DNA of 64,000 nt, taken from assembly GCA_023252195.1 (NCBI GenBank), contig JAHEXI010000002.1, forward strand, positions 248,001 through 312,000, in the 5' to 3' direction. The notes under the pieces are model-generated. The model was not told the DNA's origin, ran no database searches, and saw nothing but the letters and a program-made list of their open reading frames with translations. Below are positions 1,249 through 35,700 of this stretch, one piece after another. Within the stretch, counting starts at the first letter, position 1, and each line of letters opens with the position of its first letter. Source of the stretch: Pseudonocardiales bacterium. Lineage in GTDB: Bacteria > Actinomycetota > Actinomycetes > Mycobacteriales > Pseudonocardiaceae. Made by a program: the position numbers and the translations under genes.

Positions 1249-1727
1249 GGCGCGCCGTCTGTCCCGGCTCTTATGATCCCGCCACCAATGGGCACCTCGA
1301 CATTATTGAGCGGGCAGCGAGCCAATTCGACGAGGTCGTCGTCGCAGTCTTGATCAACAAGACCAAGAACTGCCTTTTCGAGGTCTCTGACCGGATGGCG
1401 ATGCTCAAGGAGATCACCGAGCATCTACCCAACATCCGCATTGATTCCTGGCACGGGCTGCTCGTGGACTATTGCACGGTCAACGGGATCGCCACGATCG
1501 TCAAGGGGCTGCGGGCGGTCAGTGATTTCGACTACGAGTTGCAGATGGCCCAGTTGAACTACCAGCTGTCCGGCGTGGACACGATGTTGTTGCCGAGCAA
1601 ACCGCACTACAGCTACCTGTCCAGCTCAGTGGTCAAAGAGGTTGCTACCTACGGCGGTGACGTCGGCCACCTGTTGCCGGCCACTGTGCACCAGCGCCTG
1701 ATCAACCGCCTCGCCGAACGGCGCTGA
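1245..1727 (+). CDS. coaD: Phosphopantetheine adenylyltransferase
   Basis: CoaD transfers AMP from ATP to 4'-phosphopantetheine, the penultimate step of coenzyme A synthesis in the cytoplasm. The 160-aa protein has the expected length. It opens with AVCPGSYDPATNGHLDII, which contains the nucleotidyltransferase (T/H)xGH signature as TNGH. Further on it has KGLRAVSDFDYELQMA and the C-terminal YSYLSSSVVKEVA segment that stands for the ISSTxxR nucleotide-binding motif of the family. The start ATG overlaps the rsmD stop in an ATGA. The rsmD-coaD pair is conserved across actinobacteria. Confidence 0.96.
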   Translation: MRRAVCPGSYDPATNGHLDIIERAASQFDEVVVAVLINKTKNCLFEVSDRMAMLKEITEHLPNIRIDSWHGLLVDYCTVNGIATIVKGLRAVSDFDYELQMAQLNYQLSGVDTMLLPSKPHYSYLSSSVVKEVATYGGDVGHLLPATVHQRLINRLAERR

Positions 1728-1821
1728 ACGCGGGACACGCCGACCAGTCGCGTGCTCCCATATCTGGGCTGCCCGAGCGTTCACACTGTCACCTGTGGAT
1801 GGTGACCGCGAGGAGGGGCTG

Positions 1822-2529
1822 GTGTACCGGGTTTTCGAAGCACTCGACGAGCTCGTGACCACTCTCGAAGAAGCCCGTGGAGTGCCGATGACCTCCAGTT
1901 GCGTGGTACCCCGCGGGGACGTTCTGGAACTGCTCGACGACGTTCGCGATGCGATTCCGGCAGAGCTCGATGACGCTCAGGACGTGTTGGATCATCGCGA
2001 CGAGCTGGTGGAGACCGCGCGGCAGGAGTCGCAGCGCCAGCGCGACGACGCTCGCACCGAGTCAGACAAGATGGTGACTGAGGCCCGCGACGAGGCTGCG
2101 CGCTTGGTCGCTGAGGCCCGTACCAGCGCCGAGTCGCTGGTCGCCGGCGCGCAAGCCGAAGCTGACCGCATGGCGATCACCGGACGGCGGGAGTATCAGG
2201 AGCTCACCGGGCGCGCCGAGGCCGAGGCGGAACGGATGACCGCGGCCGGGCGGACGGCCTACGAGCGGGCTGTCGCCGACGGCCGAGCCGAGCAGGCCCG
2301 GCTGGTCGAGCAAACCCAGGTGGTGCAAGCGGCCCGTGCTGAGGCCAAGCGAATTCACGACGAGGTGAGCGCCGAGGTGCACCGGCTGCGTTCGGAATGC
2401 GACGCCTACGTCGAAGGCACCCTCGCGGAGTTCGAGGATCTACTCAACCGCACCTTGCGCGCCGTCGGGCGCGGCCGCGTCCATCACAGTGGACCGGTGG
2501 CTGCAGGAGTGGGTGAGTACCCTCGGTGA
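1822..2529 (+). CDS. sepIVA: SepIVA-like DivIVA-domain septation protein
   Basis: The gene encodes an Ala/Glu-rich coiled-coil protein (235 aa) of the family of mycobacterial Rv2927c/SepIVA, a septation factor with a short DivIVA-like head. The head YRVFEALDELVTTLEEARG followed by VVPRGDVLELLDDVRDAIP and LDDAQDVLDHRDEL is characteristic. Residues 70-210 are one long coiled coil with repeated EA-x-RL and EAERM heptads. I place the start at the GTG at 1822, because an AGGAGG-like site at 1811-1816 precedes it and homologues begin with YRVFEAL; an upstream GTG at 1795 is possible. The block with DUF177, rpmF and rnc downstream is the mycobacterial order. Division function is inferred from the family. 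Confidence 0.82.
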   Translation: MYRVFEALDELVTTLEEARGVPMTSSCVVPRGDVLELLDDVRDAIPAELDDAQDVLDHRDELVETARQESQRQRDDARTESDKMVTEARDEAARLVAEARTSAESLVAGAQAEADRMAITGRREYQELTGRAEAEAERMTAAGRTAYERAVADGRAEQARLVEQTQVVQAARAEAKRIHDEVSAEVHRLRSECDAYVEGTLAEFEDLLNRTLRAVGRGRVHHSGPVAAGVGEYPR

Positions 2530-2591
2530 GCGTGCCGGGCTCGGTGTCGCGGCATCGTCGGTTCGGGCCAGGGCCTACCCTGAGAACCCTG

Positions 2592-3122
2592 ATGCCTCGC
2601 AAGACCGCTGCCGCCAGACCCGATCCGACCGCTGCCTGGGTGATCGACACCCGTGAGCTGGGCAGGCGTCCCGGGTCGATGCGTTCCTACCACCGTGATG
2701 TCCCGCTGTCGGTCGGGATCGGGCTGGACGTGATCGGGATCCCCGCGGGAGACCAGGTGTCCCTGGACTTGCGGCTCGAGTCGGTCATGGAGGGAGTGCT
2801 GGTATCGGGCACGGCATCGGCGCCGGTCACCGGTCAGTGCGCCCGGTGCCTGGATCCGCTGGTCGATCGGCTTGAGGTCGAGCTGGTCGAACTGTTCGCC
2901 TACCCCGACACGGCGACCGACGAGACTACGGATCCTGACGAGGTCAGCCGGGTCGTCGACGACCTCGTCGACCTCGCGCCGGTCGTTCGTGACGCGATGC
3001 TACTGGCTTTGCCGCAGGCACCCTTGTGCAGCGAGAACTGCCTCGGCCTGTGCCCGGAATGTGGCGGTAAGCGGGCGGAACTCGGTACGGATCACCGGCA
3101 TGAGAGAATGGACCCGCGCTAG
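2592..3122 (+). CDS. DUF177/YceD family metal-binding protein
   Basis: This is the YceD-type protein encoded directly upstream of L32 in most bacteria; plant and bacterial members are linked to 23S rRNA accumulation. The sequence has [15 protein letters not shown] at its start, the conserved CARCLDPL motif mid-protein, and a C-terminal [14 protein letters not shown] with the other cysteines, consistent with metal binding. I choose the ATG at 2592 (176 aa), preceded by TACCCT at 2576-2581. A GTG at 2526 overlapping the sepIVA stop would add 22 residues unlike the family. rpmF follows after 60 bases. The precise biochemical role is not established from sequence. Confidence 0.85.
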
Positions 3123-3182
3123 ACCGTCCAGAGACAAAACTGAAGCAGCGGTTGCGCGGAAGCGAATAGGAGAACGAGTAAC

Positions 3183-3365
3183 GTGGCTGTCCCCAAGCGC
3201 AGGATGTCGCGGTCCAACACCCACTCGAGGCGGTCCCAGTGGAAGGCCACCGCACCGACTCTGGCGGCGTGTTCGAACCGGGCCTGCAGGCAGCCTAAGC
3301 CGCCGCACACGGTCTGCCCGCACTGCGGGAAGTACGACGGTCGCCAGATCGTCCGGTCAGCCTGA
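3183..3365 (+). CDS. rpmF: 50S ribosomal protein L32
   Basis: L32 is a small protein of the large ribosomal subunit. The 60-aa product starts [20 protein letters not shown], the standard L32 leader. It keeps the four zinc-ligand cysteines, as a CSNRAC pair and a CPHCG pair, so it is the zinc-containing form rather than a zinc-independent paralogue. A GTG start lies 9 bases downstream of AGGAGA (3168-3173). It stands between DUF177 and rnc, the usual order. Confidence 0.97.
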
Positions 3366-3384
3366 CGCCGGACGCGACGAACCC

Positions 3385-4128
3385 TTGGGAAATCGGTCTC
3401 CGCGGGATCACCCGTCGGATCTGACCCCGCTACTCAGCGCGCTCGGCGTTGATCTCGACGCCGAGCTGCTGACTCTCGCCCTCACCCACCGCTCGTATGC
3501 CTACGAAAGCGGTGGGTTGGAACCCAACGAGCGGCTGGAGTTCCTCGGCGACGCGGTGCTCGGTGTGGTCGTCACCGACCACTTGTTTCGCACCCACCCC
3601 GATCTACCCGAAGGGCAGCTCGCCAAGCTGCGGGCCAGCGTGGTGAACATGCATGCGCTGGCCGGGGTCGCTCGCGGGCTGGCGACCAATGGCCTGGGCG
3701 AATACGTCTTACTGGGTCGGGGCGAGGAGCTCACCGGGGGCCGACACAAGTCCAGCATTCTGGCCGATACCACCGAGGCACTCATCGGTGCGGTGTACTT
3801 ACAGCACGGCATGGACGTCGCCCGCACTGTGGTGCACCGGCTGTTCGACCAGCTCATGGTGATGGCTCCGCTGTTGGGCGCCGGGCTGGACTGGAAGACC
3901 AGCCTGCAGGAGCTCACCGCCAGCCGAGAGTTAGGCGTGCCCGAGTACCGGATCACCGAGGACGGGCCAGACCATCTCAAGGAGTTCACCGCGACCGCCG
4001 TGATCGCCGGCGTGGACCGGGGGACCGGGCGGGGCCGGACCAAGAAAGAAGCCGAGCAGCGGGCCGCCGAGACCGCCTGGCGCTCGCTGTCCGAGTTGGC
4101 CAGCGGGAACGCTCCGCCGGCGGGGTAG
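3385..4128 (+). CDS. rnc: Ribonuclease III
   Basis: RNase III cleaves double-stranded RNA during rRNA and mRNA processing. The endonuclease domain shows [13 protein letters not shown] and the catalytic signature [20 protein letters not shown] (conserved E, D and E positions). It also has [17 protein letters not shown], which supplies the second acidic pair. The C-terminal third is the dsRNA-binding domain, with [20 protein letters not shown] and [18 protein letters not shown]. The reading frame is open far upstream through rpmF. The only reasonable start near the domain is the TTG at 3385, giving 247 aa, a normal length. This start is weaker evidence than the identity. mutM follows after 6 bases. 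Confidence 0.93.
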
Positions 4129-4134
4129 CGCAGC

Positions 4135-4989
4135 ATGCCGGAGCTGCCCGAGGTCGAGGTCGTCCGGCTGGGCCTCGCCGAACACGTCACCGGGCGCACG
4201 GTGGCTGCCGTCGAGGTGCGCCACCCCCGCTCGGTGCGTCGCCACCTCGCCGGAGAGCTGGACTTCGCCGCCCGGCTGGCTGGTCGGCAGATCCTCGGTG
4301 TTCGCCGCCGCGGAAAGTACCTCTGGCTGGATCTGGGTGGTGAGGAGGCGTTGCTGGCTCATCTCGGGATGAGCGGTCAGATGCGCATCCAAGAGCCTGG
4401 GTCGGCCGACGAGGCCCACTTGCGGGTGCGACTACAGTTCGCCGACGGGGGTTCTGAGCTGCGCTTTGTCGACCAGCGCACGTTCGGTGGCCTGTCCCTG
4501 GAGGACGTGGTCGACGGCCTGCCCATCCCGGTCGCGCACATCGCGCGGGACCCGATGGACCCGTGTTTCAATCCTGATGCGGTGATCGCCGGGATCCGGC
4601 AACGGCGAACGGCCCTCAAACGTGCGCTGCTGGACCAGACGCTGGTGTCCGGAATCGGCAACATCTACGCCGACGAAGCGCTGTGGCGGGCTCGGCTGCA
4701 CGGGGCGCGGCTCACCGCGACGCTGACCCGAGCGCAAGGACGCGCCGTGCTGACCGCCGTCACGGAGGTGATGACGGAGGCGCTCGCCGCCGGTGGCACC
4801 TCGTTCGACGCGCTGTACGTCAATATCAATGGCGCGTCAGGCTACTTCGACCGTTCACTGGCTGCCTACGGCCAGGACGGCCGGCCGTGTCCACGATGCG
4901 GCACCGCGATCCGGCGCGAGTCCTTCATGAACCGCTCCTCCCACACCTGCCCCCGCTGCCAGCCCCGACCCCGCCACCCCCACCCGTGA
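4135..4989 (+). CDS. mutM: Formamidopyrimidine-DNA glycosylase (Fpg/MutM)
   Basis: MutM removes 8-oxoguanine and formamidopyrimidines from DNA and nicks the abasic site. The mature N-terminus [13 protein letters not shown] carries the catalytic N-terminal proline and the glutamate next to it. The helix-two-turn-helix region with [19 protein letters not shown] is intact. The C-terminal zinc finger is present as CPRCGTAI...CPRCQ, with MNRSSHTCP between. Length (284 aa) is typical. It follows rnc closely, as in mycobacteria. Right after the stop codon comes a long palindromic repeat (4996-5059). Confidence 0.97.
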
Positions 4990-4995
4990 AGACTG

Positions 4996-5059
4996 GTCGT
5001 GAACTCGACAGCACGGACCTTTTCGCCGACGAGAATGTCGGTCGTGTCGAGTTCACGAC
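4996..5059. repeat. Intergenic palindromic repeat, copy A (after mutM)
   Basis: Perfect 15-bp inverted arms GTCGTGAACTCGACA (4996-5010) and TGTCGAGTTCACGAC (5045-5059) enclose 34 bases. It begins 7 bases after the mutM stop. The right side (5037-5060) is nearly identical to the right side of a second element after rlmN (46477-46500). The two are therefore copies of one repeat family rather than chance hairpins. It could also act as a transcription terminator for mutM; there is no T tract. Confidence 0.75.
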
Positions 5060-5081
5060 GCCGAGCGGCGGGAGGGGGGTT

Positions 5082-5357
5082 ATGGGACGGGTGCGGATGA
5101 CGGTTTGGGTGCATGGTCGCGTTCAGGGGGTGGGGTTTCGCTGGTGGACCCGTTGTCGGGCGCTCGAGCTGGGCCTGGTCGGTCACGCGGCCAACCTGTC
5201 CGATGGAAGGGTCGAGGTAGTCGCAGAGGGGCCGCGAGACACCTGTGTGAAGTTGCTCGCCGCGCTACGCTCCGGGTCCACGCCCGGGCAGGTGAAGCAG
5301 GTGAACGAGCGGTTCGACGACGCCCTGGGCGGCTTGACCGGTTTCGTCGAGCGCTGA
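5082..5357 (+). CDS. acyP: Acylphosphatase
   Basis: Acylphosphatase hydrolyses carboxyl-phosphate bonds such as in acetyl phosphate. The 91-aa product has the fold signature RMTVWVHGRVQGVGFRWWTR, with the catalytic arginine in GFRWW. The second motif appears as GHAANLSDGRVEVVAEG, which holds the catalytic asparagine (ANLSDGRVE). The ATG at 5082 has a purine-rich GGAGGGGG site 3-10 bases upstream. In most actinobacteria acyP is followed immediately by smc; here pabAB lies between them. Confidence 0.95.
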   Translation: MGRVRMTVWVHGRVQGVGFRWWTRCRALELGLVGHAANLSDGRVEVVAEGPRDTCVKLLAALRSGSTPGQVKQVNERFDDALGGLTGFVER

Positions 5358-5363
5358 GCACTC

Positions 5364-7451
<2,088 letters not shown>

Positions 7452-30743: not shown

Positions 30744-31067
30744 ATGAGCGCCGAGGATCTCGAGAAGTACGAGACCGAGATGGAGCTGTCGCTCTACAAG
30801 GAGTACCGCGACGTCGTCGGACAGTTCGCCTATGTCGTGGAGACCGAGCGGCGTTTCTATCTGGCTAATGAGGTTGATGTCCAGGCCCGCAATGCTGACG
30901 GTGAGGTGTACTTCGAGGTGCGGATGTCCGACGCCTGGGTGTGGGACATGTACCGGCCGGCCCGCTTCGTTAAATACGTCCGAGTGCTCACGTTCAAAGA
31001 CGTCAACATCGAGGAAGTGGACAAACCGGACTTACGGCTGCCCGAAGGTACTCCCTTCGGTGGCTGA
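30744..31067 (+). CDS. DUF2469 family protein
   Basis: A 107-aa acidic protein of the actinobacterial DUF2469 family (mycobacterial Rv2901c type), always found next to rnhB. It begins MSAEDLEKYETEMELSLYKE and continues YRDVVGQFAYVVETERRFYL, with RPARFVKYVRVLTFKDVNIE near the end. The function is unknown. I take the ATG at 30744; the frame extends 60 bases upstream into rnhB without similarity. Confidence 0.9.
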   Translation: MSAEDLEKYETEMELSLYKEYRDVVGQFAYVVETERRFYLANEVDVQARNADGEVYFEVRMSDAWVWDMYRPARFVKYVRVLTFKDVNIEEVDKPDLRLPEGTPFGG

Positions 31068-31760
31068 TCCGGCGTGTGGCCAAAGAGGTGCGCCCGAAGC
31101 TGTCCTGCGCTGGATACCGCGGTCTTCCCGAGCATCGCTTTGGCGTGATCGTTGACCGTGTGCAGGGAGATATGAAGTTCGGCTGCGATCGCCTTTCGGG
31201 GCAGGCCGGTCAGCAGCCGCTGCGTGGCGTCGCCTTCCCGGCTCGTCAGTCCGTACGCCGCCATGATGAGCGGAGTAAATGTGGCGGGACTGGTCGGCTC
31301 GATTACGACGGCGACCCAGCCTCGCGTCGTCGAGGAATGAGGCATGCACCGTCAACCACCGACCCGAAAGGGCGCGGACCCGCGCTCGGGCTGGACCCGT
31401 CTCCGAGTTCCGCGGGGCGGTGAGCTGTTCGACCACGGTGAGGAAGGCCGTCGGCAGCTGGCTGTTGTGGGCGCGGTCGAGGTCGGCAAGCCAGCAACTC
31501 GCCGCTGACGCGGACTCGAGAGTTCTGTCGGCATTGAGCACGAGTACGCCGGAGCCATCCGGGTCAACGATGCTGAGGGCTTGTTCGGTCACCACCGGTC
31601 GCCAGCCGCTCGAACAGACCGTCGGCAAGGGCGGGGGTTGCCCTGGCGGTGGAGCACCACCGGACGGCGGCCCGCTCGCCCGTGCTCCGTAGAAAGGCCA
31701 CGCTGAAAAATCGCACGAGGCAGCCGTCGGCGGACTCCCTGGAACTGGGGATGGTTCGTC
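31060..31760 (-). pseudogene. LuxR-family regulator broken by frameshifts
   Basis: Reading leftward, three consecutive frames give pieces of one regulator. The first is a GAF-like end (DGCLVRFFSVAFLRSTGERA, TPALADGLFERLATGG). The second is a PAS-like segment (GSGVLVLNADRTLESASAAS, CWLADLDRAHNSQLPTAFLT, RVRALSGRWLTVHASFL). The third is a LuxR helix-turn-helix (AAYGLTSREGDATQRLLTGL, AAELHISLHTVNDHAKAML). The frame changes fall near 31570 and 31325. The HTH frame has no stop of its own and runs into the 3' end of DUF2469. The expected N-terminal part beyond about 31760 is not clear. A dead gene is the simplest reading; sequencing errors are the alternative. Confidence 0.55.
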
Positions 31761-31781
31761 AGCGCAGCGCCGAAGACCGTT

Positions 31782-32205
31782 GTGAAGATGACCCAGCTGC
31801 GTGATCACTCCAGCAGGATTGGCGTCTATCCGCCGGACGAGGAGTTGAGGGCAGCGGCGCACGCCGTGCCAGGAACGCGGACTACTCCAGGTGTCGTCAC
31901 CGCACTCGGCGGACCCGAGCTGGCCGGTCCCGAGGTTGCGGGTGCGCTGACATTGCTGCATACGACGTTCGCCGACAATGGCGGAGCCCAGCATGGCTAC
32001 CGCAAACTTCGCCGCGATCAATGAGGACTTCTGCGACCGGGGGGTCCTGCGCTGGTTGACGTTCAACGATGGGCCACACGGGTACGCGCTCGGACTGTGG
32101 GGGACAACCGACGAAGTCGCAGCGTTCATCGCGGGAAGTGCGACGCCGGACGGTGTACTGCCCACGGTGCAACACCGCCATGGCGGCCCCCGCCCGTGCG
32201 TGTAG
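31782..32205 (+). pseudogene. Possible remnant of an unidentified plus-strand gene
   Basis: Two adjacent plus-strand frames read like protein with high GC at third positions. The first (31782-32024) contains VYPPDEELRAAAHAVPGTRT and GGPELAGPEVAGALTLLHTT. The second (from about 31990 to 32205) contains NFAAINEDFCDRGVLRWLTF and PHGYALGLWGTTDEVAAFIA. A change of frame near 31995 would join them into one product of about 140 aa. I do not recognise the family. It lies between the LuxR remnant and the secreted-protein gene, on the opposite strand to both. It may be spurious. Confidence 0.25.
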
Positions 32206-32289
32206 GAACTGCAGGCAGGCACTCGACGACCCGTTTAGCGCCTGACCAACCATCACCTCAGGCGGCCGCTTGAGGCCACCGATATCACA

Positions 32290-33408
32290 TCAGTCTATGT
32301 TCGTATTGAGGAAGTCGTTCAAGGCGCCATCGTATTTCGCGGCTTGCCGTATCGCTACGATAATGCCACCGAGCACCCAGTTCCCCACCGTTATGCAGCT
32401 GCGAATCGCTACGATCGCCTCTGGAGCCGCGGCGCCGATTGCACAACCAGCTCCTGAGATGACAGCGGCAAGAGCCGGATACTTCTCCACTGCATAGCCG
32501 AGGCACCCAGCGACATCCTTAGCGTTAGTTTGGCCACAGGAGACGGCCGAGTCCAACTGATCCACGTTTTCTGCATAATTTTGCAGATAGGTCAGATAAT
32601 CGTTCCAGGTCATGTGCCCTGACGTGGCAGGGTCAGGTTTCGGGCAAAAGCGGTTGGGTGTGTCGTTTGGTCCGGTGATACATGCGAAGGGGATCTGCCC
32701 ATCACCTCCACCCGCAGACGGGTCAGCGTTATTTCCGCTGCCAGGATCGACATTATTCTTATCTTCTGCGGGATCGAGATGGATGTTAATGACGGTGGCT
32801 TCGGTCCACTGGCCGTTTACTAGGGCGCGAACCCATACCTGCAGACTACCGGGGTTGATTGCGTTGTGCCCAGGAGAGTCTGGCGCAATACCGTACTCAG
32901 TACCGGACAGCGTATGCTCGTCGTGGTAGTTTTCCCATACCGCTTTTCCGTCCTGAAAGAATCCGTAAAGGTAGCCTGAGGCGCCGTCGACGGGCTGGAC
33001 CTTGAAGAGGATCGAACCTTTATAGCCCAACGTCTGGCCATTGACCGGGTAAACGAATACCGGGCCCGGAAGTGCGCTTACTTCTCCCATCTTTCGCTCG
33101 TCGAAGCTATCAAGGCCGGCGCTACTGAGTCTGCCAGCTACGGCAGCCACATCTCCATCCGCATAATAGCGAGTTGCCTGTGGAAATGTGTCCGCCGTGT
33201 TGACGGTTGCTCCAGGTGCAGGCCCAGCGCTGGCGCTGCCCGAAGTGCCCGCTGTGCACAATACTAAGCACGCCAGAAGAGTCATGGAACGTGCGAAAAC
33301 CGACGGCCTGTGCCGCACGATTCGGATTCCCTCGCGCCGGAGTCGACAGCAAGTTTTGGCTGAGGCGATCGGGCTCTTGGTCAATCCGGTGTAGCGCATG
33401 ACATCCAC
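32290..33408 (-). CDS. Secreted protein of unknown function, AT-rich islet
   Basis: Up to 372 aa, read leftward. An Arg-rich leader (RHRPSVFARS) is followed by the hydrophobic segment MTLLACLVLCTAGTSGSASA and an Ala-x-Ala-type cleavage point near residue 61, so export by Sec is likely. The mature part has a first domain (residues 75-205; VFVYPVNGQTLGYKGSILFK, SLQVWVRALVNGQWTEATVI). An Asp/Asn/Gly linker with GSGNNADPSAGGGDG comes next, then a C-terminal domain with six cysteines and a hydrophobic Ala/Ile/Gly stretch (ALAAVISGAGCAIGAAAPEA). I recognise no family. Base composition is clearly less GC-rich than its neighbours, suggesting transfer. The start is uncertain; an internal GTG or ATG nearer the signal peptide is possible. 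Confidence 0.7.
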   Translation of the reverse strand: MDVMRYTGLTKSPIASAKTCCRLRREGIRIVRHRPSVFARSMTLLACLVLCTAGTSGSASAGPAPGATVNTADTFPQATRYYADGDVAAVAGRLSSAGLDSFDERKMGEVSALPGPVFVYPVNGQTLGYKGSILFKVQPVDGASGYLYGFFQDGKAVWENYHDEHTLSGTEYGIAPDSPGHNAINPGSLQVWVRALVNGQWTEATVINIHLDPAEDKNNVDPGSGNNADPSAGGGDGQIPFACITGPNDTPNRFCPKPDPATSGHMTWNDYLTYLQNYAENVDQLDSAVSCGQTNAKDVAGCLGYAVEKYPALAAVISGAGCAIGAAAPEAIVAIRSCITVGNWVLGGIIVAIRQAAKYDGALNDFLNTNID

Positions 33409-33808
33409 CCGTCGCCCTTGCGGGAGGGAACTCTGGTAACGTACCTATCGGTAATGAACCGTAAATTGTTACTGTGTCCTCTTTTGTCCACCAATACCTT
33501 TTTGTCCTGATCGTCAGATCTCAATAATCCCTCGCCATCGTGATTTGCCTGCGCAAACGCCAGTCCGGTCGGCTGCTCCTCAACAGTCTGCCCAACACCG
33601 AGGCAGCGTCTGGCCGAGCGGGGTGATCACTCGCCAATCAAACATGCGCTATCACGTCACCCTGACACCTCGCGTGGCCACCGGCACTGCGCGCGCTACT
33701 TGTCCACACCCGCCCGGTTGTCCACAGGCTGGCCCGCGTGACATCGACCGCGCTCCCCGGACCCGGCAGCCTGATGGCTAAAGATCGCCGAGGGACGGAG
33801 AGATCGAG
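33409..33808. other. AT-richer intergenic region between the secreted protein gene and the UPF0102 gene
   Basis: This 400-base divergent gap contains no convincing gene. On the minus strand, TTTACG and TACGTT about 16 bases apart just upstream of 33420 could be a weak promoter for the secreted protein. Toward the right end are two perfect TTGTCCACA sites. One 8-of-9 match (TTGTCCACC) is at 33484-33492. Confidence 0.4.
33700..33726 (+). promoter_or_regulatory. Pair of DnaA-box-like sites (TTGTCCACA x2)
   Basis: Identical direct copies of TTGTCCACA stand at 33700-33708 and 33718-33726, 18 bases apart start to start. TTGTCCACA is the DnaA-box form preferred in high-GC actinobacteria. The pair lies upstream of the UPF0102 and comM genes. 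Whether DnaA binds is inference. No dnaA, dnaN or clustered array is present, so this is not oriC. Confidence 0.5.
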
Positions 33809-34189
33809 ATGGAGACGACGGCGCAGCCGGCGGACCGCCGTAGCGACGAGCTGGGCAAACGGGGGGAGGACCTGGCGGCGGACTATCTCGCCGACACCGG
33901 GCTCGTGCTGCTCTCGCGTAACTGGCGGTGCCGCGACGGCGAGGTTGATCTGATCGCAACTGATGGCGAGCGCCTTGTCATCTGCGAGGTGAAGACCCGG
34001 TCGGGCAGCGGGTATGGGGAACCGGCCGAGGCTGTGACGGCGGCGAAAGCGGCTCGGATCAGGAGGGTCGCGGCGCAGTGGCTGCGCACGTATCGAGTCG
34101 GCTGGTGTGAGATCCGGTTCGACATCGTGGCGGTGATGTGTCCCCCGGACGGTCCGGTGACCGTGGAACATCTCCAAGGTGCGTTCTGA
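33809..34189 (+). CDS. UPF0102 family protein (YraN-like)
   Basis: A 126-aa protein of the YraN/UPF0102 family with a restriction-endonuclease-like fold. It has LGKRGEDLAADYLADTGLVL, then NWRCRDGEVDLIATDGERLV and CEVKTRSGSGYGEPAEAV, which supply the D-x-ExK-type active-site residues (GEVDLI...EVKTR). The function is not established; Holliday-junction resolvase-like activity has been suggested from structure. The start ATG follows GAGAGATCGAG. Its stop overlaps the comM start (TGATG), and yraN-comM-dprA is a common operon. Confidence 0.93.
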   Translation: METTAQPADRRSDELGKRGEDLAADYLADTGLVLLSRNWRCRDGEVDLIATDGERLVICEVKTRSGSGYGEPAEAVTAAKAARIRRVAAQWLRTYRVGWCEIRFDIVAVMCPPDGPVTVEHLQGAF

Positions 34190-35700
34190 TGTCGCTGGCC
34201 AGCGCTTGGGCGGTAGCGCTGCACGGGGTTGACGGGATGCTGGTGGAGATCGAGGCCGATATCGGTCCGGGACTGCCGGGGCTGCACATGGTTGGCCTGC
34301 CCGATACCGCCTTGTCCGAGGCGCGGGACCGGGTACGGGCCGCGGTGCTCAACTCGGGTGAGCGGTGGCCGTCGCGGCGGATGACCCTCGCGCTGTCGCC
34401 TGCCACCCTGCCCAAGGGCGGGAGCAGCTATGACGTCGCACTGGCGTGCGCCTTGCTGGCCGCTGACCGTCGGATTCCCGGCGAGCGGCTGTGCGGATTG
34501 GTGTTGATCGGGGAGCTGGCCCTCGACGGCCGGCTGCGCCCGGTACGCGGGGTGTTGCCCGCCGTGCTTGCGGCGCGTCAGGTCGGCATCGGTCAGGTGG
34601 TGGTGCCGACCGCCTCCCTCGCCGAGGCCTCCCTGGTGGACGGGATCCAGGTGCGCGGCGCGACGTGCCTCAAGGAGGTGCTCAGCTGGTTGCGCAACCC
34701 CACCGTCGGGTTGGCCTGCTCGGGCCCGCCGCGCCCGGCACCCTCGGTGACGGTCCCCGATCTCCGCGACGTGCTGGCACAAGGAGACGCCCGCTGGGCG
34801 GTGGAGGTCGCCGCTGCCGGGGGCCACCATCTGTTCCTCACCGGGCCGCCGGGCACGGGCAAGACCATGTTGGCGCAGCGGATGGTGGGGCTGCTGCCGG
34901 CGCTGACCGATCAGGAGGCGCTCGAGGTGACCGCAGTGCACTCGGTGGCTGGCCTGCTATCGCCGGAGACGCCGCTGATCACGCTTCCCCCTTTCGTTGC
35001 GCCACACCACACCAGCTCGGTTGCTGCGTTGGTCGGGGGTGGCTCGGGGTTGGCCAAACCGGGCGCGGTGAGCCGCGCGCACCGTGGGGTGCTGTTCCTC
35101 GACGAGGTCGCGGAGTTCGGACCGCGATCGCTGGAGGCGCTGCGCACGCCGCTGGAGGATGGCGAGATCCGGTTGGCCCGCCGGGACGGGGCGGTGCGAT
35201 ACCCGGCGCGGTGTCTGCTTGTGCTGGCGGCTAATCCGTGCCCGTGCGCTCCGCCCGACGAGCGAGACTGCACGTGCGCCCCGTCGGCGCGCAGGCGGTA
35301 CCTGGGTCGACTGTCCGGGCCGCTACTGGACCGGGTGGACCTGCGGGTGGCGATGCGTCCGGTCAAGGACATGGGTGAGTCCGACGCCGAGCCGGAGAGC
35401 ACCGCGATCGTGCGCGCACGGGTGCTCAGGGCCCGTGAAGCAGCTCGGGCGCGGTGGGTGGGCACCGGCTGGAGCACCAATGCCGAGGTGCCCGGTCCGG
35501 TGCTGCGGCGGCGGTTCCGGCTGCCGCGGGCGGTGACCGAACCGATCGCGGCAGCGCTGCATCGCGGAATGGTCACAGCGAGAGGAGCGGACCGCACTCT
35601 GCGGTTGGCGTGGACGGTGGCTGACCTGGCCGGGCGGGACCGTCCGTTGGCCGAGGACGTGAGCGCCGCGATGGGGCTGCGAGATCGGCGGGCGGCATGA
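34189..35700 (+). CDS. comM: YifB/ComM family Mg-chelatase-like ATPase
   Basis: ComM is a hexameric branch-migration helicase that helps integrate incoming DNA in naturally competent bacteria. The protein (503 aa) has the N-terminal ComM-type domain (VEIEADIGPGLPGLHMVGLP). Its AAA+ core has Walker A GPPGTGKTMLAQRMVGLLPA, Walker B GVLFLDEVAEFG, and a C-rich insertion NPCPCAPPDERDCTCAP typical of YifB. The C-terminal LRLAWTVADLAGRD helix is conserved. It is coupled to the upstream gene by TGATG, and its stop overlaps dprA. Competence has not been shown for most actinomycetes carrying these genes. Confidence 0.94.
   Translation: MSLASAWAVALHGVDGMLVEIEADIGPGLPGLHMVGLPDTALSEARDRVRAAVLNSGERWPSRRMTLALSPATLPKGGSSYDVALACALLAADRRIPGERLCGLVLIGELALDGRLRPVRGVLPAVLAARQVGIGQVVVPTASLAEASLVDGIQVRGATCLKEVLSWLRNPTVGLACSGPPRPAPSVTVPDLRDVLAQGDARWAVEVAAAGGHHLFLTGPPGTGKTMLAQRMVGLLPALTDQEALEVTAVHSVAGLLSPETPLITLPPFVAPHHTSSVAALVGGGSGLAKPGAVSRAHRGVLFLDEVAEFGPRSLEALRTPLEDGEIRLARRDGAVRYPARCLLVLAANPCPCAPPDERDCTCAPSARRRYLGRLSGPLLDRVDLRVAMRPVKDMGESDAEPESTAIVRARVLRAREAARARWVGTGWSTNAEVPGPVLRRRFRLPRAVTEPIAAALHRGMVTARGADRTLRLAWTVADLAGRDRPLAEDVSAAMGLRDRRAA

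What the first reader, a model, noticed from the sequence alone, without database searches (positions are those of the whole stretch)
32290..33408. Novel exported protein in an AT-rich islet
A full-length two-domain secreted protein with six mature cysteines, a Gly/Asn/Asp linker and a hydrophobic C-terminal stretch. Its base composition is clearly lower in GC than the core genes around it, and I recognise no family. The hydrophobic Ala/Ile segment flanked by cysteines could be a membrane-inserting element. It lies between DUF2469 and the UPF0102 gene, adjacent in many actinobacteria, so it is probably acquired.
Basis: partly seen in the sequence, partly recalled or inferred. Interest (0 to 1): 0.6.

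Follow-up and report, generated by a model that had tools for sequence, protein, structure and literature searches.

The report
Orphan exported protein in uncultured actinobacterium
One uncultured actinobacterial genome carries an intact-looking gene for an exported two-part protein that resembles nothing found in the collections searched; it looks like a species-specific, probably acquired gene of a kind common in bacteria, with an unproven job.

Summary
A 372-codon minus-strand frame (32290-33408) is longer than any in 500 shuffles and has the lowest third-position GC of 50 frames picked in the window (0.606; mean 0.793). The likely start is GTG 33318 behind GAGGGA, giving a 342-residue precursor with a Sec-type signal peptide (by eye), a possibly Fn3/Ig-like beta-rich part, a Gly/Asn/Asp linker and a probably helical C-terminal part with six cysteines and a borderline-hydrophobic stretch. 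No credible homologue was found in the family libraries, PDB, phages, plasmids, viral contigs or genome samples searched; the marginal hits I read look like chance, except one possible Fn3-like repeat. Not all marginal hits were opened. The gene lies in an interval (DUF2469 to UPF0102) that varies in the genus: about 400 bp in one congener, unrelated genes in five others, a broken LuxR-type regulator here. Function is not shown: both structure models were useless (mean pLDDT about 37). Best guess: an envelope-associated binding protein; a membrane-inserting toxin is less likely. Single-genome exported ORFans are common, so interest is low to moderate.

The parts
   Evidence: start chosen by reading the ribosome-binding site
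33328..33333 (-). GAGGGA, likely ribosome-binding site, 9 nt before GTG 33318
   Evidence: sequence
33226..33318 (-). Sec-type signal peptide, residues 1-31, cleavage after SASA
   Evidence: rules recalled, no predictor run
33064..33225 (-). N-terminal part of the mature protein, residues 32-85
   Evidence: no structure assigned
32767..33063 (-). beta-rich, possibly Fn3/Ig-like part, residues 86-184
   Evidence: seven strands in a low-confidence model; weak Fn3-like motif
32704..32766 (-). Gly/Asn/Asp linker, residues 185-205
32293..32703 (-). C-terminal part with six cysteines, probably helical, residues 206-342
   Evidence: helices in low-confidence models
32350..32481 (-). borderline hydrophobic stretch, residues 280-323
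31100..31249 (-). LuxR-type helix-turn-helix (GerE) of a frame-broken regulator gene; a neighbour, not part of the orphan gene
   Evidence: E 3.7e-8, above the curated cut-off; frames

Best explanation
A single-copy accessory gene, restricted to this species in the samples searched and probably acquired into a variable interval, encodes an exported protein. Shown: a long intact frame, low GC, no relatives in what was searched, an interval that varies in the genus. Inferred from sequence: Sec export; a beta-sandwich (Fn3/Ig-like) middle part; a flexible linker; a helical C-terminal part with six cysteines. Proposed mechanism, not shown: the beta part binds a surface ligand such as a polysaccharide or another cell's envelope, while the cysteine-rich hydrophobic C-terminal part keeps the protein at its own envelope, by lying on or in the membrane or by self-association. 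It would act as a surface binding or adhesion protein.
For: Frame length against shuffles; lowest GC3 of 50 picked frames; signal peptide by eye; no credible match in 10 of 10 congeners, in 296 other genomes of the family or 396 other genomes of the order (overlapping samples); variable interval; strand and helix order in the low-confidence models and hydropathy; weak Fn3-like motif (with controls 80-82); among ORFs of 60 aa or more beside it none looked like a membrane immunity protein by eye.
Against: Both models have mean pLDDT of about 37, so no fold is established. Pfam finds no Fn3 or Ig domain. No promoter-like or terminator-like site in 32000-33850 (0 found; 0.7 and 1.3 expected in shuffles). 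No sorting motif or lipobox seen by eye, so retention at the envelope is a guess. No donor or relative found. Whether the cysteines form disulfides is doubtful: no VKOR or DsbB in the genus.
Confidence: 0.3

Rival explanations
1. An exported antagonism protein (bacteriocin-like): the beta part recognises a competitor's surface and the C-terminal hydrophobic stretch, braced by disulfides, inserts into its membrane.
For: 44-residue hydrophobic stretch with cysteines in and beside it; modular layout with linker; gene in a variable interval.
Against: No immunity-like ORF of 60 aa or more next to it by eye; borderline hydropathy; no significant match in PHROGs, PADLOC, Pfam or NCBIfam.
Confidence: 0.15
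2. A native envelope protein of the genus that evolves so fast that homologues are no longer recognisable, not an acquisition.
For: Exported proteins often evolve fast (general knowledge); no relatives found, which fits either history.
Against: In G001 only 397 bp lie between the two flanking genes; in five congeners the interval holds genes that look unrelated by my reading; GC3 is atypical.
Confidence: 0.25
3. A de novo or non-functional open frame in AT-richer DNA beside a decayed regulator gene.
For: The neighbour is a broken gene; no relatives found; GC1 and GC3 nearly equal (0.60 and 0.61); no promoter-like site.
Against: Longer than any frame in 500 shuffles; coherent ribosome-binding site, signal peptide, linker and even number of mature cysteines.
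Confidence: 0.15

Closest known systems
Fibronectin type III / Ig-like beta-sandwich domains of secreted bacterial proteins (recalled class)
   Same: About 100 residues, seven strands in a low-confidence model, and an opening pattern P..G.T....F...PV.GA..Y shared with an Fn3-like repeat of another actinobacterial protein (Fn3 naming by my reading).
   Different: No Pfam Fn3 or Ig model matches; the hhalign match covers 37 columns with probability 7.6.
Saposin-like / NK-lysin membrane-active helical proteins (recalled)
   Same: Helix-rich, six cysteines, one neighbouring pair with ten residues between.
   Different: The spacings here are 11, 35, 10, 19 and 15 residues, unlike the recalled saposin pattern; no Pfam match. 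A lead only.
Lineage-restricted exported ORFans (general class, recalled)
   Same: Found in one genome only, signal peptide, atypical composition, variable locus.
   Different: Longer and more modular than a minimal ORFan.

Membership tests
Fn3/Ig-like domain | Match to a curated Fn3 or Ig profile | tested here: not met
   Pfam, whole protein and middle part alone, E up to 10
Fn3/Ig-like domain | Beta-sandwich fold | tested here: inconclusive
   Seven strands, but pLDDT of 34-42 in that region
Sec-exported protein | Basic n-region, hydrophobic core, small-residue cleavage site | tested here: met
   By eye and hydropathy; no predictor run, export itself not shown
Lipoprotein | Lipobox after a hydrophobic core | tested here: not met
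   By eye: LLAC has almost no core before it, LVLC has L at -1
Saposin-like protein | Saposin profile and cysteine spacing | tested here: not met
   No Pfam match; spacing differs (saposin pattern recalled)
Pore-forming bacteriocin | Membrane insertion | not testable with these tools
   Only hydropathy was computed, borderline
Pore-forming bacteriocin | A dedicated immunity gene nearby | tested here: inconclusive
   None by eye among ORFs of 60 aa or more
Horizontally acquired gene | Atypical composition, restricted presence, variable site | tested here: met
Horizontally acquired gene | An identifiable donor or mobile element | tested here: not met
   No match in phages, plasmids, viral contigs or genome contigs; no tRNA in the window

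The most novel reading that the evidence does not exclude
The C-terminal part founds a new family of cysteine-braced, membrane-inserting helical domains, delivered by an Ig-like receptor-binding module and used by uncultured actinobacteria against competitors.
Probability: 0.08. Interest if true: 0.55.

Novelty: new member of a known kind. Interest (0 to 1): 0.22.

Why it matters
If the protein is made and exported, it adds an unclassified module to the surface repertoire of an uncultured actinobacterial genus, and the DUF2469-UPF0102 interval becomes a convenient marker of accessory-gene turnover there. One orphan exported gene without relatives is common and teaches little until homologues appear.

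Tried and rejected
Tried without result: Pfam, NCBIfam, PHROGs and PADLOC scans, and PDB sequence searches with the whole protein and parts. The best weak lines, all taken as chance, were PF12912 (NLPC_P60 stabilising domain) at E 0.24, isocitrate dehydrogenase at 0.2 and 0.018, 'Immunity 23 family protein' at 0.67 and four PHROGs at 0.093 to 0.42. In one search a 'Conserved membrane protein' (8qox_B, E 1.2) aligned along nearly the whole middle part; not followed up. Rfam gave nothing in 31000-34200.

Weak genome hits that I opened (names by my reading): L003, an NlpC/P60-like protein matched in its signal region; L007, an AMIN-like lipoprotein; L029, a membrane protein; L032, adenylosuccinate-lyase-like; L056, inositol-monophosphatase-like (E 4.8e-5 per genome, in 394 genomes). 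These I take as chance. L058 is an Fn3-like repeat protein (E 0.007), which I keep as a hint. L005: the matching frame was not in the list, so not identified. L057: no ORF of 100 aa there. Not opened: L002, L004, L006, L026-L028, L030, L031, L034-L036, L059.

Number of hits besides the own gene, per-genome E: at 0.01, 7 in 395, 3 in 296, 4 in 393, about what chance gives; 4 in 99, above the 1 expected, two of the four read (L003 identified, L005 not) and matched mostly in the N-terminal quarter; at 0.001, 1 in 296 (L007); at 0.0001, 0 in 396. In some searches at most 6 and 5 first-look candidates per genome were scored, so sensitivity there was reduced.

Structure: both AlphaFold jobs gave mean pLDDT of about 37, so I ran no fold search. 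The Fn3 comparison is partly circular, since one of its four repeats was the search hit; three control proteins scored lower.

Considered and dropped: riboswitch control, lipoprotein, Tat signal (both by eye).

Full report
Source. The window is contig C41:248001-312000 of a 4.74-Mb genome, 97.8% complete. The six named records closest to it by the UPF0102 protein (77-86% identity) are metagenome-assembled genomes, five labelled Pseudonocardiales and one Actinobacteria. It therefore belongs to an uncultured actinobacterial genus, of which the tool holds ten other genomes.

The observation. The frame at 32290-33408 on the minus strand is present. The region's longest frame, 384 codons between stops, was not reached in 500 dinucleotide shuffles, whose maximum was 278. 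GC is 0.569 and GC3 0.606, the lowest of 50 frames that a simple coding score picked in the window, mean 0.793.

Relatives. No credible one was found. The whole protein was compared with 100 relatives, 297 genomes of the family and 397 of the order; the C-terminal part with 396 of the phylum; the middle part with 297 of the family and 394 of the class. Each count includes the window's own genome, and the samples overlap. Apart from the own gene, hits were few and weak. The best, (E 4.8e-5 for one genome), lies in an inositol-monophosphatase-like frame. I did not open all weak hits; they are listed under Tried and rejected. Phages and plasmids gave nothing at E up to 1. Scans of viral and genome contigs gave nothing, but they need shared short peptides and so exclude only close relatives. 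The own genome has no paralogue (only a chance line at E 7.9).

The locus. UPF0102 was found in 9 of 11 genomes of the genus, the window's included, and I fetched the upstream side in the other eight. Gene names here are my reading of listed frames of 80 aa or more. G001 has 397 bp between DUF2469 and UPF0102 and no gene that I could see. G007 and G010 have a cytochrome-P450-like gene. G009 and G002 have a P450-like and an amidohydrolase-like gene. G004 has a cluster of several genes. G003 has another upstream neighbour and is not comparable. In G006 the contig ends 656 bp upstream, with what looks like a LuxR-type fragment. The interval is therefore a variable site. In the window it holds a frame-broken LuxR-type regulator (GerE, E 3.7e-8) and the orphan gene. 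DNA conserved in front of UPF0102 begins near 33660.

What the protein may be. The whole-protein model has no confidence (mean pLDDT 36.6) but places seven strands in 118-210 and five helices in 268-370 of the 372-residue frame. The C-terminal part alone gives 37.2 and six helices. A weak Fn3-like opening motif is shared with repeats of another actinobacterial protein: hhalign gave P 0.0046 over 37 columns, against 0.13, 0.14 and 0.62 for three controls. One of the four repeats was chosen by the search, so this is a hint only. I commit to an envelope-associated binding protein at 0.3; that it is an exported accessory gene of any role I put near 0.75. A membrane-inserting toxin is at 0.15, because hydropathy is borderline and no partner gene is seen.

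Cysteines. Whether they form disulfides is uncertain. In mycobacteria DsbA and VKOR introduce disulfides into exported proteins (abstract of PMC12421883). VKOR was found in 0 of 11 genomes of this genus, in 8 of 8 sampled genomes of other genera of the family and in 5 of 12 of other families of the order; DsbB in 0 of 11 of the genus. A DsbA-like domain (PF13462) matches four times in the own genome, once only in part. Many of these genomes are incomplete drafts; I think 0 of 11 is hard to ascribe to gaps alone, but another, unsearched oxidant may exist.

Literature. I ran four paper searches and saw their listings, and read the abstract of PMC12421883. None of the listed papers concerned this protein by title; the searches were by topic and narrow.

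Verdict. Probably a real, species-restricted exported ORFan; ordinary in kind, unexplained in function.

Noticed in passing
window genus, genomes G000-G010: No VKOR (0 of 11) and no DsbB (0 of 11) in this genus, whereas 8 of 8 sampled genomes of other genera of the family have VKOR; DsbA-like domains are present in G000. The genus may have lost or replaced the usual re-oxidant of disulfide formation.
   Followed up: partly
window 31032-32222: Frame-broken LuxR-type regulator on the minus strand beside the orphan gene; what looks like a LuxR-type fragment lies at the same place in G006 (by eye).
   Followed up: partly
L020 (G004) 1700-5400, between DUF2469 and UPF0102: A cluster with a helix-turn-helix protein, an asparagine-synthase-like, a PqqD-like and a methyltransferase-like protein, by my reading possibly a peptide natural-product cluster.
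   Followed up: no
DUF2469-UPF0102 interval across the genus (L017-L024): Accessory-gene turnover site: near-empty, P450-like, P450-like plus amidohydrolase-like, a multi-gene cluster, or the orphan gene (names by my reading).
   Followed up: partly
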